A DNA stretch of 33,633 nt from Cytauxzoon felis. Lineage: Eukaryota > Apicomplexa > Aconoidasida > Piroplasmida > Theileriidae. The position numbers and the translations under genes were made by a program. This document shows, one piece after another, positions 1,548 to 32,969 of this stretch. The stretch is taken from contig JAIQCW010000229.1 of the NCBI GenBank assembly GCA_020283715.1, positions 1 through 33,633 of the forward strand, given 5' to 3'. The first letter of the stretch is position 1. Every line of letters begins with the position of its first letter. The notes below the pieces were generated by a model. It was not told the DNA's origin, did not search any database, and saw nothing but the letters and a program-made list of their open reading frames with translations.

Positions 1548-2232
1548 ACAACTCGCCGTTCCACCCGAGGTCTTTCCACTGCCGTGGTGGCTCTTCCAAT
1601 TACTTCCCCCTCCGCTTCCCTGAGATCAGCTACAGATATTATAGTTGAGGTGTAATCCACCTAATCATTCCACTCGCCGTTCTGGCCTTTCCATTTAATT
1701 ACCCTCCGCCTAACATTTGTCGGCTACGGAGCATTTACTATAATATATTCAATTAATTTACTATAACAATTCTATATTTTATGTGTAATACTATTTACAA
1801 ACCTCATATAATATTATAATAATTTAATAAAGTATATATAGTTAGTATTATTATAAGTATAATATAGTTACTATAATAGTATTACATCATGTTAATAGTT
1901 ATATAGTATATATATTATAATAATTATTTATATAAATAGATATATACCATCATACAACTATACATCATCCTTCAATTGTAGTAATATACATGTATATATT
2001 ATATTGAACCTAGTATATTAATTAGATTGTTAAATGTGGGATGTTACCCCCATAATAATGGGGTTGTGGTGATGATGAAGGTGTATGATGCTTGATACCT
2101 CTGCCACGATCTCCGGGAGTGGCTTTACTCTTTAGAGATGAATAATTAGAAGAAGGCTCCACGCCGAGTGGAATGAAGAGTTGGATTGGATTCTACCTTC
2201 GGTGGAGGTGTTATAAACTTCGGTGATTGTAT
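1548..2232. repeat. Composite fold-back element with AT-rich cargo (intergenic copy 1)
   Basis: The left arm (about 1548-1735) has decayed modules: CTCGCCGTTCCACCCGAGG, CCACTGCCGTGGTGGC and CCCTGAGATCAGCTAC. An AT-rich block follows (about 1740-2030), closely similar to 15530-15780 and 18620-18880; shared landmarks are GTTAGTATTATTATAAGTA, AATATAGTTACTATA and CATCCTTCAATTGT. The right arm (about 2095-2232) is in reverse orientation: GCCACGATCTCCGGGAGTGGC, CTTTAGAGAT, CTCCACGCCGAGTGGA and a GGTGGAGGTG end. It fills the gap between Tpr-like copy 1 and the 6-Cys gene. No coding potential is seen. Confidence 0.7.
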
Positions 2233-2246
2233 TCATCTATCAAGAT

Positions 2247-4055
2247 TCACTGGTTATATTTCATTGTATCATGAGTAAAATCTTCTTCATTAGTTTCAAT
2301 TGGAATTTGTACTTGTATGGTTGCGAGTGTTTTACCATTTACAGAGTTACAATTACATGAGACAGTTTCAATTTGTACATTATCATTTAATCCTTTAGGT
2401 AAATGAAAATCTAAAATTGTTAGATTTTTACTGGTTACAAATCTAGCATATTTTGTGATATCATTTAAGTTGATGATATTACCATTTGTATTGAATACAT
2501 TTTTAAAACAATTTGGTGGATCTAATATATAATCTTTAGGACAATAGAAACCAATAGGTGACATTATTCTAGAATCTAATAAACATTTTGTTGGTATATT
2601 ATCATCTTTGATACCTTGTTGGAAATCTATACGTTCATCTTTAAAAATGAAATTATAATCAATACCACAACCAAATGTATATGGATCTGTAGGTATTAAA
2701 CCTAATGATATAGTACCAGATATATATGGTTTAATTGATTTATATTGAGAATGCATTTCCCAAAAATATGTTAGATTAGTATTTTCATTTTTTAAAACAA
2801 GTATAGAATCTTTATTATAAGTAATTAAATATTCAAGTCGATCATAAACATTTTGTTTTTCTATTTTAAAATTAGTAGCTGCTATAATAGAATCTAATTT
2901 AACTTGTATAACATTATTACTTTGTATATCATGTATATATGTTAAATTTATAATTTGATTATATGGTGCTAATATACTTTTATATAATCCATTTCCATAT
3001 GTAACATCATCACCATTAAATGGTGTTATTATACGTATAGAATCACCTGGTCTTAATTCTCTACGACATACTTGATCTTTTGGTGTTCTTTTTTTACTAT
3101 CAGCAATAGATTTATAATCACATACATATTCTTTTACTTTTGTAACTTTTAAAGTAGATGTAATATTACCCGATTTATCTAAACATTCACATTTTATATT
3201 AATATCTGTATTATATCCTTGTGATGGTACTTTAAATAAATGTAAACGTGAATTTATATCCATATATTTAAAATCTGGATCATATAATAATTCACCATCA
3301 TTAGTTAAACCAGTATAACATACATCATCAAATACATCACCTTTACCACAATATATACCAATTATCATATCTGGCTCTGGTATTATCTCACATTTAGGTG
3401 ATCCATAATCTATAGTCTCAAATAAATTTGTTATATTATAATTTGGTAATACATTTGAAAATAAATTATAACCTCCACTACCACAACCATATGCTAATGG
3501 TAATACATTTGTAAATTTTATCTCTAACCATCTATATAATTCATTAGTATTATCTTCAGTAGAATTGTATATACATGCCAAATTTAAAGAGAAATCATCC
3601 AACTTTTTGGATACAATTACACTCGAATATGGATGTTGAATTAGATAGCTACCACCCAATATATCCATAGTTTTATGTATAATCGTCCTATCAGACCGAA
3701 ATATATCAAAATTATTCAGTACACGCTTAATACTATCATTTATACCAGATTTTAACATAGGAGCTAATGTATGCTTTACAGGATCTTCAGGATATAATGA
3801 TATAATCTCATCCTTACGATCACTCAAATTACCACATGTATACTTAATCGATTCACCAGGAGCTAATGTAATACTAACAAACCGATCACCCTCAATATCA
3901 AAGTCATTACGATCAGTATATGATATTTTCTTACTAAGAAATGCATAGTCTAGAGCACTCTCAACAGTGCGTGATATCTTATCCTTCAGTGAAATTGTGG
4001 AATATATAGGTGTAATAGATATTAAGAATAGGAATAATAAAGGTATATTATACAT
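2247..4055 (-). CDS. 6-Cys (s48/45-domain) secreted protein
   Basis: Single-exon 602-aa protein. It starts with a clear signal peptide (MYNIPLLFLFLISITPIYS). Two tandem 6-Cys-like domains follow. The first has the YGCGSGGYN, PKCEIIP, GIYCGKGDVFDDVCYTG and CECLDKSGN landmarks. The second has YTFGCGIDYNF, PTKCLLD, SPIGFYCPKDYILDPPNCF and VSCNCNSVNG. The G-F/I-YC-P...P/D-CF pattern is diagnostic of the s48/45 fold used by apicomplexan surface and secreted adhesins. No C-terminal hydrophobic segment or GPI-type tail is visible, so it is probably secreted or held by a partner. It is transcribed divergently from the kinase at 4356, sharing a ~300-nt AT-rich intergenic region. Which 6-Cys family member it is cannot be told from this sequence. 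Confidence 0.85.
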   Translation of the reverse strand: MYNIPLLFLFLISITPIYSTISLKDKISRTVESALDYAFLSKKISYTDRNDFDIEGDRFVSITLAPGESIKYTCGNLSDRKDEIISLYPEDPVKHTLAPMLKSGINDSIKRVLNNFDIFRSDRTIIHKTMDILGGSYLIQHPYSSVIVSKKLDDFSLNLACIYNSTEDNTNELYRWLEIKFTNVLPLAYGCGSGGYNLFSNVLPNYNITNLFETIDYGSPKCEIIPEPDMIIGIYCGKGDVFDDVCYTGLTNDGELLYDPDFKYMDINSRLHLFKVPSQGYNTDINIKCECLDKSGNITSTLKVTKVKEYVCDYKSIADSKKRTPKDQVCRRELRPGDSIRIITPFNGDDVTYGNGLYKSILAPYNQIINLTYIHDIQSNNVIQVKLDSIIAATNFKIEKQNVYDRLEYLITYNKDSILVLKNENTNLTYFWEMHSQYKSIKPYISGTISLGLIPTDPYTFGCGIDYNFIFKDERIDFQQGIKDDNIPTKCLLDSRIMSPIGFYCPKDYILDPPNCFKNVFNTNGNIINLNDITKYARFVTSKNLTILDFHLPKGLNDNVQIETVSCNCNSVNGKTLATIQVQIPIETNEEDFTHDTMKYNQ

Positions 4056-4355: not shown

Positions 4356-6207
4356 ATGTCTGATCTCGAAGTTGTAAAGCTTATACACTACGGTAAATAC
4401 AACGACGTATTTGTCGCGGAAGACTCAGAAGGTAAACAATACGCACTCAAACGATTCTATAAGCAAGAACTCCAAAATAGAAAAGATTATACAAATAAAA
4501 ATGGAAAACTTATACGTAATGATTGGATCTCAGACTTTAAACGATCACTCGAAATCCAATTAAAAGTCAAAGATGATTCATGCGTTAGATCTCTCGGAGT
4601 CTATGGAGTCACCTATGACGATAATAATGAACCAACTTTTGATGAAGAAATCGAACTAGGTTCGCCTCTATATACAAATTTAAACCAAAAATCAAAAGAC
4701 CTTCACCCTTCCACCGAAGGTTACACCTACTGTTCCACTCGCCGTTCCACCCGAGGTCGTCTTGCAGACAGCTTCTCTATTTACCTATCTCTAAAGAGTA
4801 TAGCCACTCCCAGAGATCGTGGCAAATATTATGTCTGTTCTTCCGGGTTAACAACTTTTGTTCCTCCGGGTAGAATTCTATGTTCTTAAGGGTAGACATA
4901 CCGAGGATGATCTACGGGAATCCGAGGGACAATTAAATGAAGAGGCCTCCACGGCGAGTGGAGAAGATAGGTGGCTGTAATCTCGAGTGGAGGTGTCATT
5001 TGTTTATCTTGTAAATATAATTATTTTAGTATTGGAGTTGGCTGAGTGTGGTAGTTTGATGAGATTGGAGGTATTTGACGAGCCTATTCCATTGTTCCCT
5101 AGGGGTGTTGTTAAATGTGTAGCCAAGGATATTTTATCTGCAATTAAATACTGTAAGTTGATGAATAATTTCTTCAATAAAATTTCAGTGGAATCTATTA
5201 ATGTTGCACATCGTGATGTTAAACCAGATAATATTTTCATGAATCGTACTGGAAGATCAAAATTAGGTTTGTTTATTTCAATTAATCATATTATATTATA
5301 TCAGGTGATTTTGGTGAATCAGAATTCATGAATGATGGAAAAGTTACCGGTACCAGAGGATCATACTACTTTCTAGCACCAGAAGCACTCTCACTCGAAT
5401 CTACTGGTATGCCACATCCATCCTATCAATACCTTCAATCTCCACCGATGTCCAATCCACATTTCTTCCACTTCCACCTGAGGTCTTTCCACTCGCCGTG
5501 GAGGCTCTTCCAATTCATTCCCCCTCAAACTCCCATAGATCGTTTTCGGGTTCCACTTGAGGTTACATCCAATAAATCCTTAGCACCATCTTCCATCACT
5601 ACCTTCTCCACGATCTCTGGGAGTGGCTATACCGTTTACGGGGGGGGGGGTAATTGTAAGAGCTGACGGCAGGACGAAGAGAGTTGGATTGGACCTCAAG
5701 TGGAGAAGAGCTGACGGCAGGACGAAAAGAGTTGGATTAGACCTCAGGTGGAATGAAGAGTAGGATTGAACATCGGGTTTTATGGATATATATCATTTTG
5801 TTTATATAAAATTTCAGGTATAATTGGTGAGTATGATGGTATAGCGTTGGATATGTGGGCGTTGGGTATAACATTATGGATAATTTATTTTGGTAGATTT
5901 CCGTTTAAGACAGCAACATCTGTGGTCATACAATTATTTATTGAGATAAGATCATTTGATATTGATAAGGAGGTTGATTATCTCAAGACTCAGGGTGTAG
6001 AGACTGATGATAGATTCCTTGATTTTATTAAGAAGATACTTGATAAGGATCCTACTAAAAGAATAAGACCAAATGAAGCATTGGTATGTAGAATTATTTT
6101 AAATGTGTTTATTATATTTTATTAAATAGGTACATGAATGGATACAAGATACAGATTATTCATGTGCAGAAAATTTTGCATTATCGCAGATTGTTCGTGT
6201 TATTTAG
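4356..6207 (+). CDS. Serine/threonine protein kinase, CaMKK/ELM1-like; 5 exons
   Basis: Model: 4356-4659, 5030-5266, 5305-5406, 5818-6083, 6130-6207 (328 aa). Catalytic landmarks are complete only after splicing: beta-3 Lys (YALKRF, K32), a long alpha-C insert ending EIQLK, hinge LELAECGSL, HRDVKPDN (D164), DFG (182-184, formed across intron 2), APE (205-207), then DMWALGITLW and DPTKRIRPNEAL. The insert between beta-3 and alpha-C and the LELAECGSL hinge resemble upstream kinases of the CaMKK / ELM1-SAK1 group; that subfamily placement is inference. Introns 2 (38 nt) and 4 (46 nt) are normal for this genome. Introns 1 (370 nt) and 3 (411 nt) are each filled by a fold-back repeat. The protein is little more than a catalytic domain. 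KRR1 starts 123 nt downstream on the same strand. Confidence 0.85.
4700..4998. repeat. Fold-back element in kinase intron 1
   Basis: The arms are TTCCACCGAAGGTTACACC at the left and a CTCGAGTGGAGGTG end at the right. Internal modules are CCACTCGCCGTTCCACC, CGTCTTGCAGACAGC, CTCTAAAGAGTATAGCCAC and CCCAGAGATCGTGGC, then a ~110-nt module (about 4836-4945) containing CCGAGGATGATCTACGGG. That module also occurs downstream of the Cys-rich gene (26731-26860), and part of it borders the Cys-rich fragment at 13.2 kb. Right-hand hairpin: CTCCACGGCGAGTGGAG. Confidence 0.8.
5462..5769. repeat. Fold-back element in kinase intron 3, with internal tandem duplication and an 11-G run
   Basis: Left arm TTCCACCTGAGGTC, then CCACTCGCCGTGGAGGC and a CCCATAGATCG module, then CACGATCTCTGGGAGTGGC and CCGTTTACG followed by a run of 11 G (5640-5650). 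A unit containing AGCTGACGGCAGGACGAA and ending in GACCTCAAGTGG is then tandemly repeated (about 5657-5704 and 5705-5752) as a double right arm. The G-run and tandem unit are probably replication slippage within the element. Confidence 0.8.
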
Positions 6208-6330
6208 TAAATTATAATTATTGATTTTTTTTATATAAATTAATATACACTTAATTTACTGTACAATTTTATAATTATTTTTACTTTGTGGGATGTATAA
6301 GTTGCACAAGTTGATGTATCAGATCATAAA

Positions 6331-8560
<2,230 letters not shown>

Positions 8561-8643: not shown

Positions 8644-10021
8644 ATGACAGTTAAATTTGGTAAATCCACCTTAGGGGCAATGGCCCCTCGTAATACTAAG
8701 GTGGCTAATATAGCAAAGAGGTCTATAGCGTCATTTAAGACGGGTGTATTGAATTTAATGAAAAAGGTATGGATTCTTTACATTTTTTTATTAAAATTTT
8801 TTAAAATTTAGATTAATGATAATTTAACAGAAGAAGAACGTCAAAAATTGTATGATTATTTATTTATTTTTTAAATTGATTAAATATCCTTTAATAATAA
8901 TACAGGTTAACTGAGGTAAAAAAAATACAAAATCAACGTAACGGTGTTCTAACTGCACTAAATAATTATTCTGAAGAACTTCAAGAGAAGAAAGTTAGTT
9001 TATATCCGTACATTCTTCCCTTGGGATTCAATAAGCACCCCTCATTATTACTGTAGGAATCCTTCTCGTTATATGACAGTTTACTTGATGAATTTAAAGA
9101 TTTCATGAATAAATTAGATGATATAAATGATAAATTAATAAATAATGATAAAATTTCAATAACTATGGATGGTATATCACCATCTTCTACAACTTCACCG
9201 TATGCCACCATTCAACATTTACAACCTTTTAATACATAAATACAGGATAATGGGTGAACAAGTATTCGAGCAAACCTTACCCGCACAGTATGTAACCCAT
9301 AAATAATTTTATAAAACTCCAGCATGAGGTATGAACTCGAATCTGATGTATTAAATGAAAGATCGCAACAAATACAACAACTCCGCTCCAGCGTTTACGG
9401 TATGTTGACATGAACATCTTAAAATAAAGGTTATACACCGTTCCACCTGAGGTTACAACCTTGTCTTCCACTCGCCGTGGAGGCTTCTTCCAATTATCTC
9501 CCCGTAAACGGTAGAGCCACTCCCAGAGATCGTGGCGGAAGTGAAGGTAGTCAAGATGTAACCTCGAGTGGAACCCGCAGCTGATCTCAGGGAAGCGGAG
9601 GGGGAGATAAATAGAAGAGCTAACGGCAGGACGAAGATAAGGTTGTAACATCAAGTGGAGTGGATTGTACATCGGCTGTCTCATTAATTGTACTTTTACT
9701 GATTATTTATTATAGGTATACAAGATTTGTATGAGGAGATTGGTGAGATGGTGGAGTATCAGGGTGATCAATTGGGTAATTTGTGATATTATTGGTAGTA
9801 TATAAAATTATTTTAGATAGTATTGAGAATAACATGTACAATTCATACTTAAATACAAGAGATGCAAATGTTGTGTTAAGAGATATGAATCGTGGTTCAT
9901 CATTACCAAGATCTAAGTATATTTTATATATCATTAAATTCATCGATACATTAGATATTATGTCCTGATCTTATTCTTCTTCGTCGTTATACTCTCACTA
10001 TTAGTCTATAGGAAGATCTAA
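8644..10021 (+). CDS. Syntaxin-type Q-SNARE, tail-anchored; 9 exons
   Basis: Model: 8644-8766, 8812-8849, 8906-8993, 9057-9199, 9246-9287, 9323-9399, 9716-9775, 9817-9916, 9955-10021 (245 aa). The N-terminal part is helical and coiled-coil-like (EVKKIQNQRNGVLTALNNY; LLDEFKDFMNKLDDINDKL). A SNARE motif follows (about 150-205), including QQIQQLRSSV and DLYEEIGEMVEYQGDQLDSI. In the latter, Q186 sits at the expected zero layer and YQGDQLDSIE fits the t-SNARE consensus. The last exon encodes a single C-terminal transmembrane anchor (YYVLILFFFVVILSLLVY) with a three-residue tail. That anchor appears only when the final 38-nt intron is removed. Which compartment it serves is not clear. All introns are under 65 nt except intron 6 (316 nt), which holds a fold-back repeat. 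The first exon is the least certain. Confidence 0.8.
9438..9675. repeat. Fold-back element in syntaxin intron 6
   Basis: A clean example. The left arm CCACCTGAGGTTACAACCTT is mirrored at the right end by AAGGTTGTAACATCAAGTGG. Between them are CCACTCGCCGTGGAGGC, CCCCGTAAACGG, CCACTCCCAGAGATCGTGG, a central ACCTCGAGTGGAA, GCTGATCTCAGGGAAGC and GCTAACGGCAGGACG. The inner pyrimidine tract TTATCTCCCC of the left half pairs with GGGGGAGATAA of the right half. Confidence 0.85.
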
Positions 10022-10328
10022 TTTAATTTTCTACAATCTACACCCATGCATCATGAACTCATCAGTTCCATTCCACTATACCTTCCATCCGCCTGAGGTC
10101 CAATCCGACTCTCTTCGTCCTGCAGACAGCTCCTCTATCTACTTCCCCTTCCAGCACCCGTAGATCGCTTACAGGTATTCCACTTCCACTTGAGGTTACA
10201 TCACTTCCTCCACGATCTCTGGGAGTGGCTCTACTCATTCGAGATAGGAATTTAAAGAAGCCTCCACGGCGAGTGGATGATAAGGTTGTAACCTCAGGTG
10301 GAGTGATTATACTTCATTGTATGATTAA
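10022..10328. repeat. Fold-back element in convergent gap, syntaxin / L22
   Basis: The gap between the two convergent stops has about 50 unique nt, then an element (about 10080-10305). Its modules are CCGCCTGAGGTCCAATCC, CTTCGTCCTGCAGACAGC, CCAGCACCCGTAGATCGC, CCACTTGAGGTTACATC, CCACGATCTCTGGGAGTGGC, CTCCACGGCGAGTGGATGA and ACCTCAGGTGGAG. No gene is seen here. Confidence 0.75.
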
Positions 10329-11286: not shown

Positions 11287-14200
11287 ATGAAGTTGTTTTT
11301 AAATACCAAAATTGGTATTTTAATCTTTATATTTAATATATACTATACACATTGTACTGAAAATAATGTATTAATTACATTAGATAATGGATCTGATAAT
11401 AATGATATCGATTGGAGTCGTAAAAGCTCTATTATTAGTGATAGCTTATATGGACAAGATAAATCTAAAATAAATCTATCTGGTTTATCTGATAATGTTA
11501 CAAATATATTATCCGCATTATCTTTTATATTATTATCAGCTTGTATATTACAATTTATAATATCAAAGATAAATGATAAGATACCAATATCAATAGTTCT
11601 ATTTATATTTGGTATGATTACATATATAGTCATATCATTATTTAATACACATCATATATCATCACCATTGGTATCATCATTAACATCTATAAGAAATATT
11701 GATAACTCTATATTATATTATATTGCATTACCAATATTATTATATGAAGCTACACAAAATATTAATTGGTATACATTTTGTAATTTTTTATTAGGTGGTA
11801 TATCATTAGCTGTTGTAGGGGTATGTATCCATATATCTATATCTAATTATAATTTATATAGGTTGTTATACAAGTTGCATTATTAGGTGTCGTCTTTTAT
11901 TATATTATTGGATCTGGATGGAGTTTAAATATCAGCTTCTTATTAGCTTCAATCTTAAGTTCTACAGATCCTATTGCTGTATTAGCTGTTTTAGGTGGAG
12001 TACAATCACCTAATAAATTATCACCCATGTTTAATAGTAAGTTATACCATCTAATTATATTATAAATCATTAGGTGAAGCCCTAATCAATGATGGAACAT
12101 CTGTATTGTTATTTCAATTTTTCTATCTACTTGTAATCGGTATGTTAAATACATGTGATCTTCAATCATATTCAAGGTACATCTACATCAGTATATTATC
12201 ATTTCATGTCATTATTTAAACTCTTGTTTTTGAGCCCCATATTTGGATTATTTGTAGGGCTCCTTGTAATTGTGTGGATAAGTTTTTTCCGTTGTTATCA
12301 TGTATATCAATGTTTATCTGTAATAGCTGTTGGATATTTAATATATTTCATATCCGAATTTAGAATGAATTTATCTGGACCTTTAACAATCGTATGCTAC
12401 GGTGTTGTAATCAAAGCATATGGATTAGTAGCATTTGATCGTGAAGCTCTTGATAAACACCATAATTTTGTAGAAGGTCTAGCAAATATAGCAAACTCAT
12501 CTGTGTTCCTTATAAGTGGTATACTTACAATAGGACTATTAAATGCACAACTAATATTACAAAATGTACAATATAAAATATTAAAATTATTTGCTGTATA
12601 TATATGCCTCAATATCGCCAGAGCCATTATGATCATTTCTTTCATACCACTACTCAATTATATCGGATACCCCATCAATTATAAAGAGGTTTGTAATTAT
12701 TGTGGGGATTAAATACCCCATTTATTATAGGTAATATTATTAATATGGGGTGGATTGCGTGGAGCGATGTCGTTAGTACTATGTCTAAGGATAGAAGCTG
12801 ATCCAAATATAGATCAACCAACAACAGATATGCTAGGATTTTATATTAGCGGTAGCGTAATGTTAATTTTAATCATACAAGGATTAACATTCGAATCACT
12901 ATACTGCTATCTCAACCCATACCCAATGAAAGCATTTCGACAAGTATACCTCATAAAAGTAATGAAAATGATAGAAATACAATATGACAATGAAATAAAA
13001 TCACTAGAATCACATTGGCTATTCAAAAATACAAACACAATCCAACACGCAAATAAACTCGTACCCATACTCTCCAACTTTACCTGGAATAAAATCGGCA
13101 AAATTATATTCCATCATAATAAAAACATCAATGTACGTTCAATAGAATAATATTCCACTCGAGGTCCAATCCAACTTTGTATTCCACTCGCCGTGGAGGC
13201 CTTCTCTATTTATCTCCCCTCGGATTCCCGTAGATCATCCTCGGTATTCCACTTGAGGTCTACTTAATATGACTTATTCCGCACGTGTTTCCATCTTTTA
13301 ATGTATTTGCACCATCTAACAAACAGCATGGGCAAATTATTAATGTAACGCGTTTACGATAGCATGCCATCTCACCATTTACGCATTTGGGCTCACGACA
13401 GACTTCTGTTTTTGTCACTGGTTTACACTCATATTCACCCTTCAATTCCCTCGTATACTCCTCAACTAGTTTAATAAACCCTAACAACCTGGAAGCGATC
13501 TATGGGAGCTGGAAGGGGAAGTAATTAGAAGAGCTGTCTGCAAGACGAAGAGAGTTGGAGATAATACATCAGGTGGATTGGACCTCGAGTGGAATAATCT
13601 TCTTTTAATTGATAAATAATGATATAGGAGTGTGATATACCGATTCATATGATGATTCGTTATGAGAGTGATATATCAGAGTTGTATGTAATGGATGATG
13701 AGTTGGATATAGGTATGCCACTATTTAAATATAGTGGTATACAGGGTGTTAATTCAAGTGATGTAATAAATTATGATCCTAAATTATATTTGAGATTATT
13801 AGAGCATGTTTTAACTATGGATAAAAATGATTCATCATCTGATGATATAATTAATGATATTCAATCACCAAAGGTAGATAATAATTATCCAATAAGATTA
13901 GATACGGATACTACTATTAATCTAGAGACATATTTGAATAATAGTTTTTATAATGAGGTATATATAATAACTATAATAAATATCATATGATAATTTAGGA
14001 TGAAGATGATGATATTATGAAGGGTAAAAAAATATTACGTGTTGAACGTCAAGGTGAATTATATATAATGATATTTAATGCATTTTCATATGTAAGTTTA
14101 TATCCTATCCTATCCATTATATATTAGATGTATAATGATATGTATAAAATGGGTTATATTAATGGTCGATCATTATTAGTATTACAAAAGACATTAGATA

Positions 14201-15390: not shown

Positions 15391-15447
15391 TAACATTAAT
15401 GAAGTCCAAGAGTGAATTATCGTCTACTCTACTCATCGTTACAACTC

Positions 15448-16035
15448 TGATCCCACTCGCCGTGGTGGCCTTCTCTATTTACTTCCCCCTTCGCTTCCCT
15501 GAGATCAGCTGCGGATTATAACATTTAATTAATTTACGTCAATTTACTATAACAGTTATAATAATTATCTTCTCTTAATCATTTATAACTGAAGTATAGT
15601 TTTTTAATAATTTATAGAAGTATATATAGTTAGTATTATTATAAGTATAATATAGTTACTATACTTCATATCATGTTAATAGTATTATAGTATATATATT
15701 ATTATAATTATTTATATTAATACATCAATACATCATACAACTATATTTCATCCTTCAATTGTATTGATATAAGAGTAAATGTTATTGTAAAAGACGAATC
15801 TTCATTAGACACGATAATGTAGTGTAATTATAGTGTTTTTTATCCCTACAATTCTGGGGTATGTGTGGTTTAGGTGAGTGTAATTATTTATCTAAATTGT
15901 TCACCCGGAAGCGATATACGGGAGCTGGAAGGGGAAGTAAATAGAAGAAGCCACCACGGCGAGTGGACGATAAGGATGGAGTAGATAGTGGGATTGGACC
16001 TCAGGTGGACATCGAGTGGAAGGTGAACATCAAAG
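15448..16035. repeat. Composite fold-back element with AT-rich cargo (intergenic copy 2)
   Basis: Left arm (15448-15520): CCACTCGCCGTGGTGGCC, CGCTTCCCTGAGATCAGC. AT-rich block at about 15530-15780, like those at 1740 and 18620, then about 120 unique nt. Right arm (15900-16035): CCGGAAGCGATATACGGGAG, GCCACCACGGCGAGTGGAC, TTGGACCTCAGGTGGACATC. The right arm overlaps the 3' end of the minus-strand Tpr-like frame and provides its last codons and stop. Confidence 0.75.
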
Positions 16036-18524: not shown

Positions 18525-19045
18525 CTTCTCCACTAGGCGTGGAGCCTCTTCTATTTATTTCCCCTTCGCTTCCCTGAGATCAGCTACGGGATACACTTGA
18601 GGTCTCCACTCGATGTTCAATCACTAATAATATATTAATTGAATTTAAATACAATAATTATCTTCTCTAAATTATTTACAATTCAAGTATATAATTATAG
18701 TAATTTTATGAAGTTAGTTAAGTTAGTATTATTATAAGTACAATATAGTTACTATAGTACCTTCACATCATATTAGTAGTTATATAGTATATATATTATA
18801 TTAATTATTTATATTAATACATGTATACCTTCATATAACTATACATCATCCTTCGATTGTGTTAATATACATTATAAATCACTGGAAGTATATGAAAATG
18901 ACATAATGTATTTGGAATATGGGGTTTGCCACATAATTATGGTGCTTTGTAGTGAAGGTAATGTAATAACAGACCTCAAGTTGAACCTGGAAGCGATCTA
19001 CGGGAGCTGGAAGGGGAAGTAGATAAAAGAGCTCCATGCAATGGG
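18525..19045. repeat. Composite fold-back element with AT-rich cargo (intergenic copy 3)
   Basis: Left arm (18525-18617): CTCCACTAGGCGTGGAGCC, CGCTTCCCTGAGATCAGC, CACTTGAGGTCTCCACTCG. AT-rich block at about 18620-18880. Right arm (18972-19045): GACCTCAAGTTGAACC, GGAAGCGATCTACGGGAGC, GGAAGGGGAAGTAGATAAAA. It lies between the start of Tpr-like copy 2 and the end of the ENT-like gene. Confidence 0.75.
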
Positions 19046-19115: not shown

Positions 19116-20959
19116 TTATTTGGTGTTTAGTATTATATCGATGATATCTTCGGTTAGACCTCTGGTATTATGTCTGATGAGATATGGTCGACTACTTCTG
19201 TGATTTTCAATTAGTTCGACGAATACATTTGTGAGGAAAGTGAAAAAGAGCATAGATCCGGCATTTATGAATGTAACTATATCTATCATTGTGTTGGAAT
19301 ATTTCTTCACATCATCTGGTATAATCTTCTCTTCACTATTCTCATTTTTCTTCTGTCTATTGAAATATTCAACAGCGGCGTATACAGAATTCATAAAGCT
19401 GGTCATTAAAATACCGAATCCAAATGCTCCAAATAATATTATTGGGAATATTATATGGGTAGTTTTAGAATATGGATGATTATTCCATGCTAATATTGTA
19501 AGGATTATAAATGAACCATGTGAGAATATAAGTAGAAGGATGAATTTTATATCTTTAGAGAATAAAAATTTGAAATGTGATTCATTATCCTTCTTATCTT
19601 CATCATCCAATTCTTTATTTAATGTTGATCCTATGGTTCTACCAATCAAATCACAATATGAGTATAATACATAACCCATTAATTTCATTGACCTTGATAT
19701 ATTCAAACAATATGGTACTAAAAATGGATAATAGAAGTATGCTGGAATATATGAAATCATATACAATAATGGACGCCAATAGAAATATTTCATATATGGT
19801 ACAACCTTTTTAACCTGTTCCCATTTACCTAATTCACTACCACCGGATGGAGAACCATCACCTGTAGAAGTTCCCTGGTCATTATTCTCTTTATCACCTT
19901 CATCATCTTTTACATTCAAACATTCAATATAGAGTATAAATGCCCATATAACAGCAATATATCCCAAAAGAGCTTGTGTAGAATGACATAAGAATACAAT
20001 ACGTCTACATTGCCATATAGTATCCGTACCTATAGTCTTCTCCAATATACCCTGGATTGTACCTAATACTATACGACCTAGCGAAAAACCAACATATAAT
20101 TTAGAATACAACGAAATCAATAAATATTTATTCGTCACGTACGATGCTGTAAAAATTAATATAATGATGTATAGTCAGTTGAAGTTCATCCACCTTATCT
20201 TCCACTTCCACCTGAGGTCCTTTCTTTCCACTCTCCGTGGAGGCCTCTTTATTTACTTCCCCCTCAAGCTCCCGTAGATCACTTTCGGGTTCCACTTGAG
20301 GTTACATTTAACACATCCTTAGAACCATCTTCCATCATTCCCATGATGGATGATCCATCACTACCTTCACCACGATCTCTGGGAGTGGCCCTACTCTTTA
20401 GAGATAGATAAATGAAAGGCCTCCACGGCGAGTGGAATGTTTAGGTAGATTGTACCTCAGGTGGAACGGCATGTGGAAGAGGGAAAGAGGTGTATTTACC
20501 ATCATTCTCTCACATTGTTCGGATAAACATACCTGCTTGTATGAGGAATGATTCGACGAATCCATGGCAGAAGTAGAATAGTATAAAGAGTAATTTGGCG
20601 ATATATCCAGATCCAAATAGGCCAATAAGTGCGTGAGCTGTTTGTGAGAGTGATATTAGTACTTGAAATAATATTAGATATATCGATTTATATGAGATGA
20701 AAAATGTTGATAAGACTAACGATAGACATCCTCCAGTTATATATAACATGAGACATTTACTGGAGAATTCTTCACAATTGAATATTATAGGTGTTAATAG
20801 AGCTGTATTTAAATTAAATGATGCACTTAATCCTATAATAATTATTAAAAATTGATACCTTCTAGCTCTTTCAAATTTCTCCTTTAAAAAGGCATCCTCT
20901 TCAGCTACTGTCTTCTTCTTTACGATGTTAGACCGTAGCCTATGTGATGTTATCCTCAT
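19116..20959 (-). CDS. Equilibrative nucleoside transporter-like protein; 2 exons
   Basis: Exons 20959-20533 and 20146-19116, phase-1 junction, 485 aa. Eleven hydrophobic segments are visible, six before and five after a hydrophilic loop (about aa 218-255, rich in D, E, G, S), the classic ENT topology. TM8 carries CDLIGRTIG (D308...R312), matching the DxxGR motif of ENT purine transporters. The cytosolic N-terminus is basic (SHRLRSNIVKKK). Parasites of this group depend on purine import, so a nucleoside or nucleobase carrier fits, but the assignment rests on topology and one motif. The single 386-nt intron contains a fold-back element; without splicing, neither half would make a plausible carrier. 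Confidence 0.6.
20195..20475. repeat. Fold-back element in the ENT-like gene intron
   Basis: CTTCCACCTGAGGTCC, CCACTCTCCGTGGAGGCC, CAAGCTCCCGTAGATCAC, CCACTTGAGGTTACATT, then CACGATCTCTGGGAGTGGC, CTTTAGAGATAGATAAATGA, CCTCCACGGCGAGTGGAA and ACCTCAGGTGGAACGGC. Each half carries GGAGGCCT next to its CCAC/GTGG hairpin, so the two halves can pair. Confidence 0.8.
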
Positions 20960-21904: not shown

Positions 21905-22215
21905 ATGAATTATTTCGTCTTGCAGACAGCTTCTTCTATTTAGTTGTTCCTCAAACTCCCATAGATCGTTTTCGGGTATTCCACCTGAGGTCCAATACTT
22001 ATCTCCACATTCCTCCAATGTAGGTCGTCCTGCCGTCAGCTCTTCTATTTACTTCCCCTTCGCTTCCCTGAGATCAGCTGCGGGTAGTCCACCTGAGGTT
22101 ACATCCTGACCTTCATCATCGCCACGATCTCCGGTATGAACAATCAAAAATCTTCAGGAGGTCATTTATACCTTTTAGAGGTAATTAACTGTAAAAACTG
22201 ACGGTAGGAATAATC
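21905..22215. repeat. Rearranged fold-back element in gene-poor region
   Basis: Two left-type arms lie in tandem rather than opposed. First: CGTCTTGCAGACAGC, CAAACTCCCATAGATCG, CCACCTGAGGTCCAATAC. Second: GTCGTCCTGCCGTCAGC, CGCTTCCCTGAGATCAGC, CCACCTGAGGTTACATCC. A broken right end follows (GCCACGATCTCCGG interrupted by about 30 foreign nt, then CTTTTAGAGGTAATTAACTG and CTGACGGTAGG). Confidence 0.7.
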
Positions 22216-26753: not shown

Positions 26754-26960
26754 CATTCTCTGTTCCTCCGGGTAGATTTATTGTTCTTAGGAGTTGAACA
26801 TCTTCATTCTTCCGAGTATACATTATACCGAGGATGATCTACGGGAATCCGAGGGGAAGTAAGTATAGAAACTGACTGCAAGACCTCAAGTGGAACGGCG
26901 AGTGGAAGACAAAGCTGAACCTTTGGTGAGGTAACTTCGGGTGTAATGAATGGAAGATAA
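26725..26960. repeat. Fold-back-type repeat 3' of the Cys-rich gene
   Basis: ATTCCGGGTTGACATTCTC, TGTTCCTCCGGGTAGA, then ACCGAGGATGATCTACGGG and AATCCGAGGGGAAGTAAG. These match kinase intron 1 (4836-4945). CTGACTGCAAGACCTCAAG and GGAACGGCGAGTGGAAG follow. The modules adjoining the Cys-rich 3' end also adjoin the captured fragment at 13.2 kb. Confidence 0.7.
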
Positions 26961-27150: not shown

Positions 27151-28622
27151 ATGATGGATTTTCAGAATAGAGTTGGTCATAAGACCGGTAGTGGCGCTCC
27201 TGCTAGTGCTCAAGATTTAGCTGCTGATAGAAGGGATAGATTACGTAAATTAGCATTAGAAACATTTGATTTAAGTAAAGATCCATATCTTTCAAAAAAT
27301 CATGTAGGACAATTTGAATGTCATCTATGCCTTACAGTCCATAGTACAGAATCATCATATCTCAGTCATACACAAGGCAGAAAACATCAAACAAATCTAG
27401 CCAGAAGAGCAGCCAAAGAACAAAGAGATGGATTCAATATGCCTATGGCACCACCAACCACTTCATCCAAACAGGTTTGACCATATAACATCATTCACCC
27501 ATACTCAACCTATTTCCACTTGAGATCCAATCCTTGTCTTTCCACTAGCCGTGGTGGCCTTTTCATTTACCTATCTCTAAAGAGTATAGCCACTCCCAGA
27601 GATCGTGACAGTGATGGAGTTAGTGATGTAACCTCGAGTGGAATCCGAGACGATCCATGGGAGTGGCTCTACTCTTTAGAGATAGGTAAATGAAAAGGCC
27701 ACCACGGCGAGTGGGTAAGAGATTTGTATTGGACATCGAGTGGAGGTAAACATTTGTTGTAGACTTAAATTGATTTAAAACTATTTATAGAGTATATCGC
27801 GTGTTCAGTCAATAAGGATTGGTAGGCCTGGATATAGGATAACAAAGATGCGTGATCCAGATACTAATCAATATGCGTTATTATTTGAGGTTGAATTTCC
27901 TGAAATTGAAGGTAATCCTAGACATAGATTCATGTCAGCATTTGAACAAAAAATGGAACACCCACCAGATCCAAATTATCAATTTCTATTATTCGCCGCT
28001 AAACCATACGAAACAATCGGTATGTTTAACACAAGAAACCTATATTCCACTCGAGGTACTCCACCTGAGGTCCAATTCTACTCTGATCCCACTCGCCGTG
28101 GTGGCTCTTCCAATTACCTCCCCGTAAACGGTATAGCCACTCCCGGAGATCGTGGCGAAGAATCCGAGACGATCCATGGGAGTCGAGGTGAGGTAATTAA
28201 AAGAGCTGACGGCAGGACGACCTCAGGTGGAGATGGAATGAAGAGTAGTACTGGACCTCGAGTGGAACCCGTAGCTGATCTCAGGGAGTGGCTTTACCGT
28301 TTACGGGGAAGTAAATAGGAGAGCTGACGGCAGGATGGACCTCAGGTGCATTGTATATAATGTATAATATTGGCGTTGATTTATTATATAATATATAGCA
28401 TTTAAAGTACCTAATTTGGAGGTTGACAATACTCCTGGGAAATTATTTTCACATTGGGATTTAAAAAATAAGGTTTATGTATTACAAGTTTATTTCAATG
28501 TAAGTTAATTATTATATATTTATATATTAATATTATATTTATAGAATAAAAGAACAATTAAACAATTACCAGCTTTACCACAACGTCCAAGTGTATATCA
28601 ACATATTTCATCTAAATTATAA
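27151..28622 (+). CDS. SF3A2: SF3A2 / PRP11 (SF3a66), U2 snRNP splicing factor; 4 exons
   Basis: Model: 27151-27474, 27791-28019, 28396-28499, 28545-28622 (244 aa). This is the U2 snRNP SF3a subunit that helps branch-site recognition. Landmarks: MDFQNRVGHKTGSG, the U1-type zinc finger FECHLCLTVHSTESSYLSH followed by TQGRKHQTNLARRAAKEQ, IRIGRPGYRITKMRDP, RHRFMSAFEQKMEHP, YQFLLFAAKPYETI, KLFSHWDLKNKVYVLQVYF. It lacks the proline-rich tail of the human protein and is near the yeast length. Introns 1 (316 nt) and 2 (376 nt) each hold a fold-back element; intron 3 is 45 nt. Its stop overlaps the convergent DnaJ-gene stop by 6 nt. Confidence 0.93.
27517..27748. repeat. Fold-back element in SF3A2 intron 1
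   Basis: TTCCACTTGAGATCCAATCC, CCACTAGCCGTGGTGGCC, CTATCTCTAAAGAGTATAGC, CCACTCCCAGAGATCGTG, central ACCTCGAGTGGAAT, then the mirror: GTGGCTCTACTCTTTAGAGA, CACCACGGCGAGTGGG, GGACATCGAGTGGAGG. The tract CCTTTTCATTTACCTATC occurs in both arms as an exact inverted repeat. Confidence 0.85.
28046..28352. repeat. Fold-back element in SF3A2 intron 2
   Basis: TTCCACTCGAGGTACTCC, CCACCTGAGGTCCAATTC, CCACTCGCCGTGGTGGC, CCCCGTAAACGGTATAGCC, CCACTCCCGGAGATCGTGG, then GCTGACGGCAGGACG, ACCTCAGGTGGAG, GGACCTCGAGTGGAACCC, GTAGCTGATCTCAGGGAG, CCGTTTACGGGG, GCTGACGGCAGG, ACCTCAGGTG. The intron's first ~57 nt, starting at the donor GT, are shared with an intron of the neighbouring DnaJ gene. Confidence 0.85.
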
Positions 28623-31600
28623 ATCAAATAAATTCCCCCACCATTGGAAAAAATATGGGGGAAATAAATATGATAATATGGGGTTATATTTATTTGATTT
28701 TATATTAGTTAGGCAATATTTTTTGAATAAATCATCATGATAATTAATTGGTAGATCATACCAATTAAATATATCATATTCATTATTGATTAATTGATTA
28801 ACCCAATTATAATTTAAATTATCTTCCCAATTACAATTATATGATCCTTTATTATACATTAAACAGAATTTATTTTTAACGATATCTAATAATAATATAG
28901 TACCATTATATTCATCTGTTAATGCCTTCATACCATTACCAATTTTATCACAATTTAATCGGGTCAATTGAAGATCAGTGGGGCCTTCAACAGTATCAAT
29001 TCTATTTAGAATTTCCTTTTCCTTACTAGATTCCAATTCACCCAATTCTATAAGACATAATTTACCCCTCTTATAACCACGACATAATGCATCAAATGAT
29101 TCAATATATAAATCAGGAGGTGGATATAATGTCTAAATTATATAATATAAAGAAGGTATTTCATCTGAGGCCTTCTCATTGCATGGGGCTCTCCACCTGA
29201 GGTCGTCCTGCAGACAGCTTCTCCACTCGAGGTCTTCCCACTAGGCGTGGAGCCTCTTCTATTTAGTTGTCCCTCCAGCTCCCATAAATCATCTACGGGT
29301 TCCACTTGAGGTCCAATCCATATCTCCACTTCCGCCGCGATCTACGGGAGTGGCTATACTCTTTAGAGATAGATAATTGGAAGAGCTGTCTGCAAGACAA
29401 GGAAAGGTGGATATAACCTCAGATGGAGGACCTCGAGTGGAAAATATGTTCATTGTGTTAAACATACTTTAAGTATAGAGTTTATGAATTTGACTACTTG
29501 ATCGAGTTTGAGTTCTAGATGTTTGGCATTGATTAATTTATGGTCATTATAGTATAGAGCGAGTGGTTGATTGTTATTGAGATTGAATTTATTTAATTCT
29601 GTATCATTGGGTAAATATTTATTATTTGTAGTATAGACGAATTGGAATTGATATTTAAATCTTAATGATGCATACTTTAATACTAATGGTAAATTTTTAC
29701 TGTGATAAAACACCAAAGTCGATTTATTCAAAGCTACACCTTCATAATCTTGTACCAAATTCGGGTAATACTCATAAAAATACTCCATAAAATACCCCTC
29801 ATCAAATAATGCAGTCGTAGGAAAAAGCTATTTATATTTATATCTCAAACAAACATTTCCACTCGAGGTCCAATCCAACTCTCTTCGTCCTGCCGTCAGC
29901 TCTTCTATTTACCTATCTCTAAAGAGTAAAGCCACTCCCGGAGATCGTGGCGAAGGTAGGGTAAATTTATTATTATGCGGCAAGTGGGGATATATAACCC
30001 TATAACCCTATAGTTACCCTATAATTCTATAATGGACCGCCACGATCTCTGTGAGTGGCTATACTCTTTAGAGATAGGTAAATAGAGAAGCCACCACGGC
30101 GAGTGGAAGAGAGGCAGATTGGACCTCAGGTGGAGTACCTCGAGTGGAATATAGGTTTCTTGTGTTAAACATACATCATATTTCCCATCGGATGCGAGCA
30201 TGAATACGGCGGGATAAATTCTATTTATTGTAGATATTGAATAGATTTACTTACTGTACATTAAGTGGTAATTTCTTAACTAATTTCTTATGTATTAATG
30301 CATTTATTCTACCAAATTTGGCATAATTACCAAGTTTTTTAGCTATAAATGGGGGTATTTATATGGTGGAAATGGGGCAAATGAAAATACCATAATTATT
30401 CCAATGTGCGGCGAATGATTTGGATGATTTACATTCATCAGAATAAACTTGTATCATCCAAAGATTATCAGAATTTTTAACAAGACTAGAATATAAATAT
30501 ATATTAAATTTAATAAAATTTTAAACATACAATTTATAATTATCGGGTGTTATATTAATAGTATCTGATGGTATAACATCTACAGTTAAACCTTTAGTTT
30601 TATCATAAAGTTCTTTTAGATATGGATTAACTATAGAATTTATAATATCCAATTATAATAAACATACGTATAATTTTATAAGCTTCTTTTATTTTAAGAA
30701 ATTTATCAACACATTCTGGACAATCTTTATTCTTATCTGGATGCCTATTAAAGATTTTATTATTATATATAAAAAAATTACAACCAACCATTTCAATGAT
30801 AATTCCCTATACTTTGCCTTAATCTCAGAAGGATTAGAATCCCTCTGTACACCCAAAATCTCATAAATATCACCAACCTCAATAAAATTACTACGCATTA
30901 TATATGAATCACCCAAATACTTCAATAAAAATATAACTATATATATATAATTAGTCAATAGAATGAATACTCCACCTGAAGTCCAATCCACCTCTCTTCG
31001 TCCTGCCGTCAGCTCTTTTATTTACTTCCCCCTCCGCTTCCCTGAGATCAGCTACGGGTAGTACACTTCCACCTGAGGTTATAAATCTAATCTCGACGAG
31101 ATACGATTAAAGTGACGGAATTCATGTTTGTGGAAGTATCTCAATCAATATGAATTGGAATGAAGTGAGGATGAGTAAACTCAGTACAATCAACAAATTC
31201 CTTTTCAATGAAGTATTGAGATTTAGAATTCATTCAATGATGATTGAGAAATCTTCATGAGTTTCCCCAGAAATTCAGGATTTCCTTCAAATTTTGAGGT
31301 AAAATGAAGTTTTGAAATTAGTGAATATGACCTCAAGTGGAAGTGGAACCCGTAGCTGATCTCAGGGAAGCAGAGGGGGAAGTAAATAAGGAAGGCGCCA
31401 CGCCTAGTGGACAGACCTCAGGTGGAAGTGAAATGAAGAGTAGATTGGATTTCAATCGCATATTCTATCGTGGTTAGAACATACCTATGATAATGACTAG
31501 TATACCGGTAAATATATCATTCTTTTTGAAGAATTTTGGTATACTGGTGAATTTAAAGCCTCTATGACTGGTACTCTTGGACGATTTAGATTTGGTATTC

Positions 31601-31646: not shown

Positions 31647-32002
31647 CTTTGCCTCTTTTCCTAAATTTTATAGTCATAAGATAATAATTAACATGTATTG
31701 GACGAACCTATGTGTTAACTCCATATTGGTGTCGTGACGAATAGAAATTTTAGACACTGTTATAATTTTATGGTTTAATTAGACAAACACAATGGACATT
31801 ACTTCTTTCCATAATAATAATCCTTTAAATTTAATTAATATACATCAATGGGTATGTAAATTTATACTGTATGTCTTAGGTTATATCCTACACCTATAAT
31901 AATATCATCCACATAATAGACATTAAAAATTAGAAATATCATTTATAAATAATGTCACATAATACATGAGGAATTTTATAAATTTATCAAATTTATATTC
32001 TT
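31647..32002. promoter_or_regulatory. Divergent region DnaJ gene / E2 gene
   Basis: 356 AT-rich nt between the candidate DnaJ-gene start and the E2 start. It contains a small plus-strand frame from an ATG near 31793, with GTATGT following CATCAATGG. It has no recognisable product and may be 5' UTR. No repeat modules are present. Confidence 0.35.
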
Positions 32003-32969
32003 ATGATAATATTTCTTGTATTATTAATACAAATTACCTCTGGTCTAAGGTATAATAATAGATTCCATTATGCCATTGGTATAAATCGCAATAATTTAGT
32101 GAAAAATAGATTACAAAATGTATAACCATTTCAATTTTATACAGTGAACATTCATTTTCTATAGGAACTGATACAATTTAAAAAGAATCCACCACCTCAA
32201 TGTAAATTAGACGTCTATGGTAGTAATAATGACATATGGATCGTAACATGGACTGGATTACCAAAAACAATCTATGAAGGTGAAGTATATCGCTTAAAGA
32301 TTATGTTCCCTAAAGATTATCCACTAAAACCACCAACTATATACTTTCTTCAACCTGGTATTAAGTGTATATAACTATTGTCATTTTCATCCATTCAGCA
32401 CCCGTTCATGCACATGTGTACTCCAACGGAGATATATGTATGAGCATCCTTGGTACAGACTATCTACCCACCGCCTCTATATCAAGTTTTGTAATCTCCA
32501 TCATCTCAATGCTCTCATCCGCCAAAGAAAAACGATTACCCATCGATAACCATTTACGTAAGTTGATAAATTTCATAAATGAACATTAATAATCGATAAC
32601 TACCTGAGGTTATAGTCTTGTCTTCCATTCGCTTCACTGTTGGTCCTGCAGACAGCTTCTCTATTTACCTATCTCTAAAGAGCAGAGCCACTCCCAGAGA
32701 TCGTGGCTAGGTTGAGTAGATAACCTCAAGTGGATTACCCGAGAACGATCTCAGGGAGTGGCTATACTCTTTAGAGATAGGTAATTGGAAGAGCTGTCTG
32801 CAAGACCAAGAGAGTTGGATTGTAACCTCAGGTGGGTAGCTGATGTGTGGATATTGTGTTATGAATCTCGGTGATAATCTCTTGATATTATAAATATATT
32901 TTTGTAGATGCTGATTTGCCACCTGGATCAACGGATGTACGTTACATGTACCATGACGATAAATGTTAA
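32003..32969 (+). CDS. UBE2W-type ubiquitin-conjugating (E2) enzyme with N-terminal signal peptide; 4 exons
   Basis: Model: 32003-32119, 32165-32357, 32399-32557, 32908-32969 (176 aa). The E2 core carries NRLQNELIQFKKNPPP, WTGLPKTIYEGEVYRLKIMF, DYPLKPPTIYFL, then HVYSNGDICMSILGTDYLP with catalytic C117, SISSFVISIISMLSSAKEKR, and the C-terminus RYMYHDDKC. The last matches the unusual YHDDxC end of UBE2W. The first exon adds a hydrophobic leader (MIIFLVLLIQITSGL) followed by an Asn/Arg-rich stretch. Such a leader is unexpected for a cytosolic E2 and suits the apicoplast-associated ubiquitylation-like pathway known in Apicomplexa; that destination is inference. Introns 1 and 2 are 45 and 41 nt; intron 3 (350 nt) contains a fold-back element. 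The perforin-like gene starts 18 nt after the stop. Confidence 0.85.
32603..32838. repeat. Fold-back element in E2 gene intron 3
   Basis: ACTACCTGAGGTTATAGTC, GGTCCTGCAGACAGC, CTATCTCTAAAGAGCAGAGC, CCACTCCCAGAGATCGTGG, AACCTCAAGTGGATTACC, GAACGATCTCAGGGAGTGGC, ACTCTTTAGAGATAGG, GCTGTCTGCAAGACC, TAACCTCAGGTGGGTAGC. The loop of one hairpin differs from that in its mirror half, but both keep CTCTAAAGAG stems. Confidence 0.8.

What the first reader, a model, noticed from the sequence alone, without database searches (positions are those of the whole stretch)
1548..32838. A dense family of modular fold-back elements, about 22 copies in 33.6 kb
Seen directly: the same vocabulary of short modules recurs across introns and gaps: outer CCACYTGAGGT arms with inverted partners, CCACTCGCCGTGG, GTCTTGCAGAC, CTCTAAAGAG, GCCACTCCCAGAGATCGTGGC and CCCTGAGATCAGC. 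Module order and number vary between copies, but each copy is built as two opposed halves. No transposase frame or target-site duplication is evident, so these are non-autonomous, MITE- or foldback-like at most. I know of no described piroplasm repeat with this architecture, though I cannot search for one.
Basis: partly seen in the sequence, partly recalled or inferred. Interest (0 to 1): 0.9.

Follow-up and report, generated by a model that had tools for sequence, protein, structure and literature searches.

The report
Shuffling hairpin elements fill Cytauxzoon genome
The genome of a cat blood parasite is peppered with thousands of small DNA elements built from interchangeable hairpins, which sit between genes, inside introns and even in frame inside proteins, including a vaccine-candidate surface protein.

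Summary
The genome is Cytauxzoon felis: the published cf76 antigen matches it 100% over 723 aa. The 11-mer CCACYTGAGGT occurs 6,918 times (reversed control 1); the hairpin loop TCCCNNAGATC occurs 7,145 times (reversed control 14). At two loops per element this is about 3,500 elements.

Elements are two facing arms, usually one A and one B arm, assembled from a kit of mini-hairpins. Stems covary through compensatory changes while loops stay fixed. Hairpin types in the two arms assort almost independently. In ten core-bearing copies hairpins are near perfect, although the seven alignable cores differ 10-24% from consensus.

Elements lie between genes, in introns and in exons. In long ORFs, 32 of 33 loops are B-first in one reading frame; cf76 holds two elements. 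Eight orthologues of one such protein largely lack the stretch.

No target-site duplication or mobilising enzyme was found (the Helitron test was uninformative). Best reading: a mosaic, non-autonomous palindromic family that works like bacterial BIMEs and Rickettsia coding palindromes. Whether selection or homogenisation keeps the hairpins is open.

The parts
1561..2171 (.). Element with long AT-rich core: A-like half (1561-1704), core, B half (2103-2171)
   Evidence: joining the two clusters is my reading
4735..4961 (.). B-first element (h1 O h2 c1 b3 ... b4' h1') between coding-like blocks of a kinase-like gene (gene named by eye)
5474..5751 (.). A-first element between coding-like blocks of the same gene
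6629..7066 (.). AA element with ~250-bp core, inside KRR1 intron 2 (6567-7123)
7654..7850 (.). B-first element inside KRR1 intron 4 (7626-7942)
8307..8484 (+). B-first element in frame in the predicted KRR1 C-terminal tail (peptide [21 protein letters not shown]...[17 protein letters not shown]); past residue 305 there is no aligned counterpart, so exon status rests on the open frame
9443..9658 (.). B-first element, c2 variant; RNA fold z -7.45
10089..10301 (.). A-first element (O h2 T b2 O / b3' c1' h1' O')
13155..13592 (.). Element with two A-type halves (b4, b2')
14610..15046 (.). AA element with ~250-bp core, core in opposite orientation to 6629-7066
15453..16008 (.). AA element with a different, longer core
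18530..19028 (.). AA element with AT-rich core that shares 200 nt with 1792-1991
20208..20464 (.). A-first element
21917..22099 (+). Two tandem left A arms without a near partner
26828..26905 (-). Right A-type arm without a near partner
27516..27743 (.). Element in an intron (27476-27790) of a gene with a zf-met domain (SF3A2-like, name recalled)
28047..28349 (.). Compound element in the next intron of the same gene (28021-28398)
29193..29440 (.). Element in a probable intron of a minus-strand gene (B-first on the sense strand)
29859..30147 (.). BB element between minus-strand coding-like blocks
30972..31425 (.). AA element with ~250-bp core
32600..32835 (.). Element with c1 in both halves, apparently in an intron of a UBC-like gene (gene name and splice sites by eye, not tested)

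Best explanation
This is a high-copy (about 3,500), non-autonomous, mosaic palindromic element family of Cytauxzoon felis. Each element is two facing arms: outer motif O (CCACYTGAGGT), Y-rich linker, exchangeable hairpin h, linker T, then either module b (A arm, followed by an inner O) or c plus b3 (B arm). SHOWN: the mini-hairpins b, h and c keep fixed loops while their stems change by compensatory pairs; h types assort almost independently between arms; hairpins stay near perfect in copies whose cores have diverged; copies lie between genes, in introns and in long open reading frames; in long ORFs they are B-first in one reading frame; two cf76 allele clusters differ in a block around one such element. 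INFERRED: hairpin cassettes are continually copied or exchanged between elements by conversion-like events that use the hairpin (single-stranded DNA, or RNA) as the recognised substrate, so modules stay intact while linkers and cores decay. Insertions are tolerated in gaps and introns in either orientation. In exons purifying selection leaves only B-first, in-frame copies, which the host translates as a peptide of roughly 60-100 residues, as Rickettsia does with its coding palindromes. The enzyme responsible is unknown.
For: Copy number and controls. Grammar. Reassortment: left and right h types the same in 31 of 73 elements, 26.5 expected; AA elements sharing one core carry different arm types. 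Structure: 192 of 203 b loops have a stem of 3 bp or more against 65.6 with shuffled partners; covariation score b 0.88 vs 0.34, h 0.83 vs 0.28, c 0.61 vs 0.21, each 0 of 500 shuffles; h1 loop/suffix GCC-GGC 62, GGC-GCC 29, against 3 + 1 + 1 unmatched, Fisher 7e-20 on the 2x2 part. Age contrast: 7 alignable cores 10-24% from consensus, yet 20 arms of ten AA elements show 5 mismatches in 340 nt of b hairpin (4 at the two free loop positions) and 2 in 20 h hairpins. Beside 202 intact b loops h differs by 2.9% (A) and 3.9% (B) from the nearest type, the linker by 33% and 29% (shuffled 43-45%). Exons: 32 of 33 loops in ORFs of 250+ codons are B> in frame 2 or A< in frame 0; the stretch of one such protein largely lacks a counterpart in 8 orthologues. 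cf76 holds two elements and the two allele clusters differ only within residues 119-298.
Against: No insertion event, empty site or exchange was observed directly; no TSD and no mobilising enzyme. The ORF result is partly built in: an ORF can only run through a stop-free orientation. In the 13 shorter ORFs (150-249 codons) with loops only 7 of 17 loops are in that orientation and frame, and 7 are A> in frame 0 (many of these ORFs may not be genes). The cf76 allele block also covers flanking residues, so it is not a pure module swap. Selection on a function could explain intact hairpins equally well. Linkers are only weakly matched within an element (p = 0.05), and T pairs on the sense strand show no wobble excess (20 U-G vs 36 C-A). 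About 260 kb of 8.62 Mb was read.
Confidence: 0.5

Rival explanations
1. The hairpins are functional sites kept by purifying selection copy by copy: for example recognition sites for a hairpin-binding protein acting in chromosome organisation, replication or transcript processing. Spread was once by transposition; today they are host parts.
For: Hairpins are intact in copies whose cores have diverged 10-24% and far better kept than linkers. Loops are fixed and stems covary, as expected of sites read by structure. About 7,100 sites.
Against: Strong unevenness: 40 kb of C60 has no site where 33 are expected. Spacing is not regular (CV 0.88 over 99 gaps). Module type is nearly random between arms, odd if each copy has been kept by selection from one ancestor.
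Confidence: 0.25
2. An ordinary MITE/foldback DNA transposon family: long imperfect terminal inverted repeats moved by a lost or undetected transposase, decaying after insertion.
For: Mostly 200-480 bp, inverted arms, thousands of copies, many in AT-rich gaps and introns.
Against: No TSD signal in 76 elements. No MULE, DDE_3, Y1 or tyrosine-recombinase domain in the genome, while controls ring; Helitron search silent in the controls, so uninformative; other superfamilies were not searched. Uniform decay is contradicted by intact hairpins beside diverged cores and linkers. Arms are of two types that reassort.
Confidence: 0.12
3. Hairpin perfection arises by mutation alone: template switching within quasi-palindromes rewrites one side of a stem from the other, giving compensatory changes without function or exchange.
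For: Explains covarying stems; the process is discussed as a cause of maintained coding palindromes in PMC6649704 (passage).
Against: Does not keep the loop TCCCNNAGATC, which is not self-complementary, nor the h1 loop-suffix match; does not explain module types recurring genome-wide.
Confidence: 0.06
4. Introners: the elements carry splice sites and create introns as they insert.
For: Many copies in introns; three introns in the window share the 5' sequence GTATGTTTAACACAA.
Against: That sequence occurs only at those three neighbouring places in the genome. Of 13,861 flank pairs 21 score above the largest control score, and by eye most of the shown ones are outlying degenerate modules, not splice sites. 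Copies also lie in ORFs and gaps.
Confidence: 0.03
5. Assembly or sequencing artefact.
For: Short repeats with inverted arms can confuse assembly.
Against: Flanks differ from copy to copy, conserved genes run through or around them, and the cf76 gene record in the protein database carries two.
Confidence: 0.01

Closest known systems
Rickettsia palindromic elements (RPE), protein-coding palindromes of Rickettsia and Wolbachia
   Same: Small palindromic repeats found between genes and fused in frame inside conserved protein genes (PMC2229807, passages).
   Different: RPEs are 105-146 bp bacterial elements; here mostly 200-480 bp, about 3,500 copies, in a eukaryotic nucleus, also in introns, modular with exchangeable covarying hairpins. 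RPEs are said to lose repeat identity with time (PMC6649704, passage); these hairpins do not.
Bacterial interspersed mosaic elements (BIME/REP/REPIN)
   Same: Mosaics of palindromic units in alternating orientation, high copy (title and abstract start of PMC2817692 seen in the listing).
   Different: BIMEs are bacterial repeats associated with a REP-associated tyrosine transposase (title of PMC2817692; that its domain is Y1_Tnp is recalled); no Y1_Tnp domain here.
MITEs and foldback transposons (for example Tm1 of root-knot nematodes)
   Same: Non-autonomous, inverted arms, high copy (Tm1: title and abstract start in listings; general features recalled).
   Different: No TSD signal, no transposase found; two unlike arms; hairpins conserved beyond the rest of the element.
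Coding palindromes in Nematomorpha mitochondria
   Same: Inverted repeats inside protein-coding genes, thought to be actively maintained (PMC6649704, passages).
   Different: Those are perfect repeats in mitochondrial genes; not a dispersed modular family.
Introners (for example Amoebophrya)
   Same: Heavy element load inside introns of a protist (PMC7789003, PMC9860276, listings only).
   Different: Splice sites are not part of the unit here.

Membership tests
Rickettsia palindromic element (RPE) | Palindromic repeat inserted in frame in protein-coding genes | tested here: met
Rickettsia palindromic element (RPE) | Rickettsial host / sequence homology to RPE families | tested here: not met
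   Host is C. felis. One exact 22-base module pattern has 0 hits in genome contigs; RPE sequences themselves were not compared
BIME/REP | Mosaic of several palindromic units in facing orientation | tested here: met
BIME/REP | Associated Y1 transposase | tested here: not met
   PF01797: 0 matches, rings in 5 of 14 controls
MITE/foldback DNA transposon | Inverted arms, high copy | tested here: met
MITE/foldback DNA transposon | Target-site duplication | tested here: not met
   76 elements; best z 4.0 over 1,764 offset/length combinations, which I take as chance; element ends are uncertain
MITE/foldback DNA transposon | Autonomous partner or transposase in the genome | tested here: inconclusive
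   MULE, DDE_3 none; Helitron none but control silent; other superfamilies not searched
Introner | Element supplies the splice sites of a new intron | tested here: not met
   KRR1 introns extend beyond the element on both sides
LINE/SINE-type retroposon | Reverse transcriptase source in the genome | tested here: inconclusive
   Two RVT_1 matches in one ORF of 1,010 aa in C56, probably telomerase (not tested)
Any Rfam RNA family | Match to a covariance model | tested here: not met
   0 at gathering on the window; 0 up to E = 1 on window 9400-9700

The most novel reading that the evidence does not exclude
A nuclear genome carries a running hairpin-cassette exchange system: about 7,000 small hairpins, recognised by loop and fold rather than by stem sequence, are swapped between some 3,500 docking elements, in and between genes and inside reading frames. 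It rewrites introns and diversifies in-frame peptide segments in many proteins, among them the vaccine candidate cf76. I know of no transposon, intron or repeat class that works this way in a eukaryotic nucleus.
Probability: 0.3. Interest if true: 0.95.

Novelty: new variant of a known kind. Interest (0 to 1): 0.86.

Why it matters
A survey of 64 apicomplexan genomes reported no transposable elements in C. felis, no DNA transposons in Apicomplexa, and discarded its MITE candidates as false positives (PMC9141347, passages). Here module clusters, cores included, span 14.2% of the first 220 kb read and 12.0% of all 260 kb. It gives a nuclear counterpart to bacterial coding palindromes, with structural covariation that can be tested. 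It also matters in practice: peptides like those of the cf76 elements recur at many other places of the genome, a good part of them in long open frames (95 matches to cf76, its own included and some with stops inside; a lower bound). A serological signal against the C-terminal part of cf76, which contains one element, could therefore be shared by other proteins. Gene models of this parasite should be revisited.

Tried and rejected
Target-site duplications: none beyond chance. Introner idea, raised by a shared 5' intron sequence: the sequence is confined to three neighbouring introns. RNA-level pairing of the long arms: no wobble excess on the sense strand, and the fold z-score is -7.45 for one element but -1.11 for another, so the long fold-back is not the main conserved feature. 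Inverted duplication as the origin of the two halves: arms are mostly A and B and match their own partner only marginally better than others. Retroposition: RVT_1 in one ORF only. Known RNA family: none. Viral or bacterial source: one module pattern each has no hit in viral contigs or genome contigs. Frame kept in all copies: A arms outside ORFs show none (16/14/14), B arms some (22 of 39). Sense orientation between same-strand coding blocks: B-first 23, A-first 10; of the 12 open right through, 11 are B-first and 1 A-first, leaving 12 to 9 for the rest. My automatic splice-site finder was unreliable; only KRR1, whose exons align to yeast Krr1, and the two introns listed are relied on. One search measured module decay with windows that missed part of the A arms; it is replaced. 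An 18S rRNA search failed three times because the machine was busy, so the organism was fixed through cf76. The expected number of A-B pairs under random pairing (about 37 of 74) is my arithmetic.
Full report
WHAT WAS CHECKED. The window is contig C132 of an assembly of 8,623,106 bases in 181 contigs. CCACYTGAGGT occurs 29 times in the window, 0.02 expected, and 6,918 times in the genome, 1 for the reversed pattern. The window has 24 clusters of three or more modules, 0 when read backwards. I read 260,317 bases in all: the window, L009-L027 and L030-L033. In the first 220,317 bases, 108 clusters span 14.2%; the added 40 kb hold none, giving 12.0% overall.

WHICH ORGANISM. A 6-Cys protein of the window is 45% identical to Theileria equi. 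A search with an element-encoded peptide returned only two proteins at E up to 10, both surface antigen cf76 of Cytauxzoon felis, among 189 candidates scored (candidates were limited to 0.55-1.75 times the query length and had to share exact words). cf76 then matched the genome 100% over 723 aa at C114:6540-8708. The published C. felis genome is 9.1 Mb with 31.8% G+C (PMC3748084, passages).

ANATOMY. Each arm, read inwards, is O (CCACYTGAGGT), linker (about CCAATCCAACTCTCTTC), hairpin slot h, linker T (about TTCTATTTAC), then one of two endings. A arms go on with TTCCCC, hairpin b (several types) and an inner O; B arms with hairpin c and hairpin b3. Of 74 paired elements 31 are AB, 27 BA, 11 AA and 5 BB. 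Ten of the 11 AA elements have a long core; seven of these ten cores align to one 250-bp sequence. Extra O-h layers may be stacked outside.

STRUCTURE. The loop TCCCNNAGATC was found 203 times in the 220-kb part. Of these, 192 are closed by a stem of at least 3 bp (G-T allowed); with partners shuffled the mean is 65.6. Seven different Watson-Crick stems close the same loop: CAC/GTG 79, GCT/AGC 71, AGC/GCT 22, AAC/GTT 9, GAT/ATC 5, AGT/ACT 2, GAC/GTC 2. On 31 distinct b sequences the covariation score is 0.88 against 0.34 shuffled; on 10 distinct h2/h4-type sequences 0.83 against 0.28; on 11 distinct c sequences 0.61 against 0.21. No shuffle of 500 reaches any of these scores, and slid structures score lower. 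Two of the five measures, counts of pairs and of pair types with changes, do not exceed the shuffles in any of the three. The h set left out h3, which has no such stem, and one further variant. The rows were chosen by loop or context, and related sequences can inflate such scores. In h1 the last three loop bases match the suffix after the stem: GCC-GGC 62, GGC-GCC 29, against 3, 1 and 1 unmatched, and the neighbouring loop base varies on both. Genome-wide the loop occurs 7,145 times, 14 for the reversed pattern.

CONSERVATION. Seven alignable cores of AA elements differ by 10, 10, 12, 12, 13, 16 and 24% from their consensus. In the 20 arms of the ten AA elements, b hairpins have 5 mismatches in 340 nt to the nearest known type, 4 of them at the two free loop positions, and the 20 h hairpins have 2. 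Detection used T and the TTCCCC after it, not b or h. Taking the nearest of several types lowers the counts somewhat. Beside 202 intact b loops (120 A, 82 B), h differs by 2.9% and 3.9% from the nearest type, O by 7.7% and 7.0%, T by 9.7% and 18.7%, and the linker by 33% and 29%; shuffled sequence gives 34-45% for these. The linker figure may include real variety of linkers as well as decay.

REASSORTMENT. The two arms of an element carry the same h type in 31 of 73 cases, 26.5 expected; linker similarity to the own partner is borderline (p = 0.05). Elements that share the same core carry different h and b types. The two cf76 allele clusters differ only between residues 119 and 298, a block that contains the first element (residues about 179-275), and are identical elsewhere. 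The paper on cf76 reports 91-100% identity among eleven samples and a 30-bp tandem repeat that one sample has only once (PMC3748084, passages). The C-terminal element of the genome copy contains EADGRNVTSGG twice, 33 nt, which is an h3-O layer; that it is the reported repeat is my inference.

WHERE THEY SIT. KRR1 in the window is a clear case. Its spliced product aligns to yeast Krr1 over residues 11-305 with only small gaps, none at the element-bearing introns. Elements lie in two of its five introns (557 and 317 nt; the other three are 36-39 nt), and a third lies in frame in the C-terminal tail. Of 96 clusters that could be judged in the 220-kb part, 52 lie between coding-like sequence of the same strand (a rough codon model). 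ORFs of 250 or more codons cover 36.6% of the 260-kb sample and hold 34 of 203 loops, a 2.2-fold depletion. In such ORFs 32 of 33 loops that lie at least 60 nt from the ORF ends are B forward in frame 2 or A reverse in frame 0; of 56 A-B elements none lies in such an ORF on the A-first strand. In 13 ORFs of 150-249 codons, however, only 7 of 17 loops fit this and 7 are A forward in frame 0; some of these ORFs are probably not genes. The pattern is partly a consequence of where stop codons fall, so by itself it does not prove selection. The stronger point is that long or conserved proteins carry them: a 2,067-codon ORF (the part tested has a weak, below cut-off Cpn60_TCP1 match) holds eight loops, and in an 859-aa protein most of the element-bearing stretch faces gaps in T. 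equi, T. orientalis, T. annulata, T. parva, three Babesia proteins and one unnamed relative (eight of the 15 hits were aligned; the region around it is poorly conserved in all). Outside ORFs, 12 of 50 A-B elements are open on the B-first strand, 6 of 50 on the other, 8.4% in shuffles.

WHAT IS MISSING. No TSD signal in 76 elements. Domain searches of the whole genome found no MULE, Y1_Tnp, DDE_3 or tyrosine recombinase, with controls ringing; the Helitron search is uninformative because its controls were silent. One ORF with RVT_1 matches is probably telomerase (not tested). Rfam has no match. No other piroplasm genome could be searched at the DNA level.

HOW IT MOST LIKELY WORKS. The conserved unit is the mini-hairpin, not the long fold-back. 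Module types vary freely between arms, yet modules are near intact even in copies with diverged cores. Two processes can do that: repeated replacement of modules by intact ones (conversion or cassette exchange), or selection on each hairpin. The near-random assortment and the variable cf76 block favour replacement; the sheer perfection is compatible with both. I put replacement first at 0.5 and selection at 0.25. The exonic pattern is explained by tolerance: only the B-first, in-frame insertion usually leaves a gene readable, as in Rickettsia coding palindromes (PMC2229807, passages).

NOVELTY. The Apicomplexa mobilome survey included C. felis, found no elements in it and removed all MITE candidates (PMC9141347, passages). 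My paper searches (open-licence PMC texts only) found no description of this family; of the papers I saw passages or listings only, none whole, and subscription papers were not searched. I file it as a new variant of a known kind, mosaic palindromic elements that can be coding, and keep the bolder reading as the novel case.

Noticed in passing
L030-L033 (G000:C60:20001-60000): An element desert: 40 kb with no b loop and no O motif even with one mismatch, where 33 loops are expected at the genome average, although ordinary long ORFs are present. Domains rich in and free of elements are unexplained.
   Followed up: partly
window 28020-28043 (+), 29444-29467 (-), 30151-30174 (-): Three neighbouring introns share the 5' sequence GTATGTTTAACACAANRAACMTAT, found nowhere else in the genome: apparently local copying of an intron end together with its element.
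   Followed up: partly
window 1792-1991 and 18673-18872: A second, AT-rich core type shared between two elements (200 nt, 84% identical).
   Followed up: no
window about 4840-4900 and 26740-26820; L014/L015 ORFs: A further short repeated motif (TTCTTCCGGGT) within or next to elements, apparently also read in frame as NPEEQ-like peptides in two ORFs of contig C10 (seen by eye).
   Followed up: no
L034, cf76 locus: The C-terminal part of cf76, reported as seroreactive, contains an element-derived peptide with many similar places elsewhere in the genome, so antibody cross-reaction is possible (serology from PMC3748084 passages).
   Followed up: partly
window 23244-26753: A multi-membrane-span ORF (457 codons) and a Cys-rich ORF (606 codons) lie between unpaired left arms (21917-22099) and an unpaired right arm (26828-26905); the membrane protein seems to have a larger paralogue at 15888-18308 (judged by eye).
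   Followed up: no
G000:C56:73693-74436 (L028, L029): The only reverse-transcriptase domain found in the genome, in a 1,010-codon ORF; probably telomerase.
   Followed up: no
P0006 and P0012: Two proteins from sources without a name (53% and 44% identical to the 859-aa C. felis protein) may come from unsequenced piroplasm relatives; P0006 lacks most of the element stretch.
   Followed up: partly
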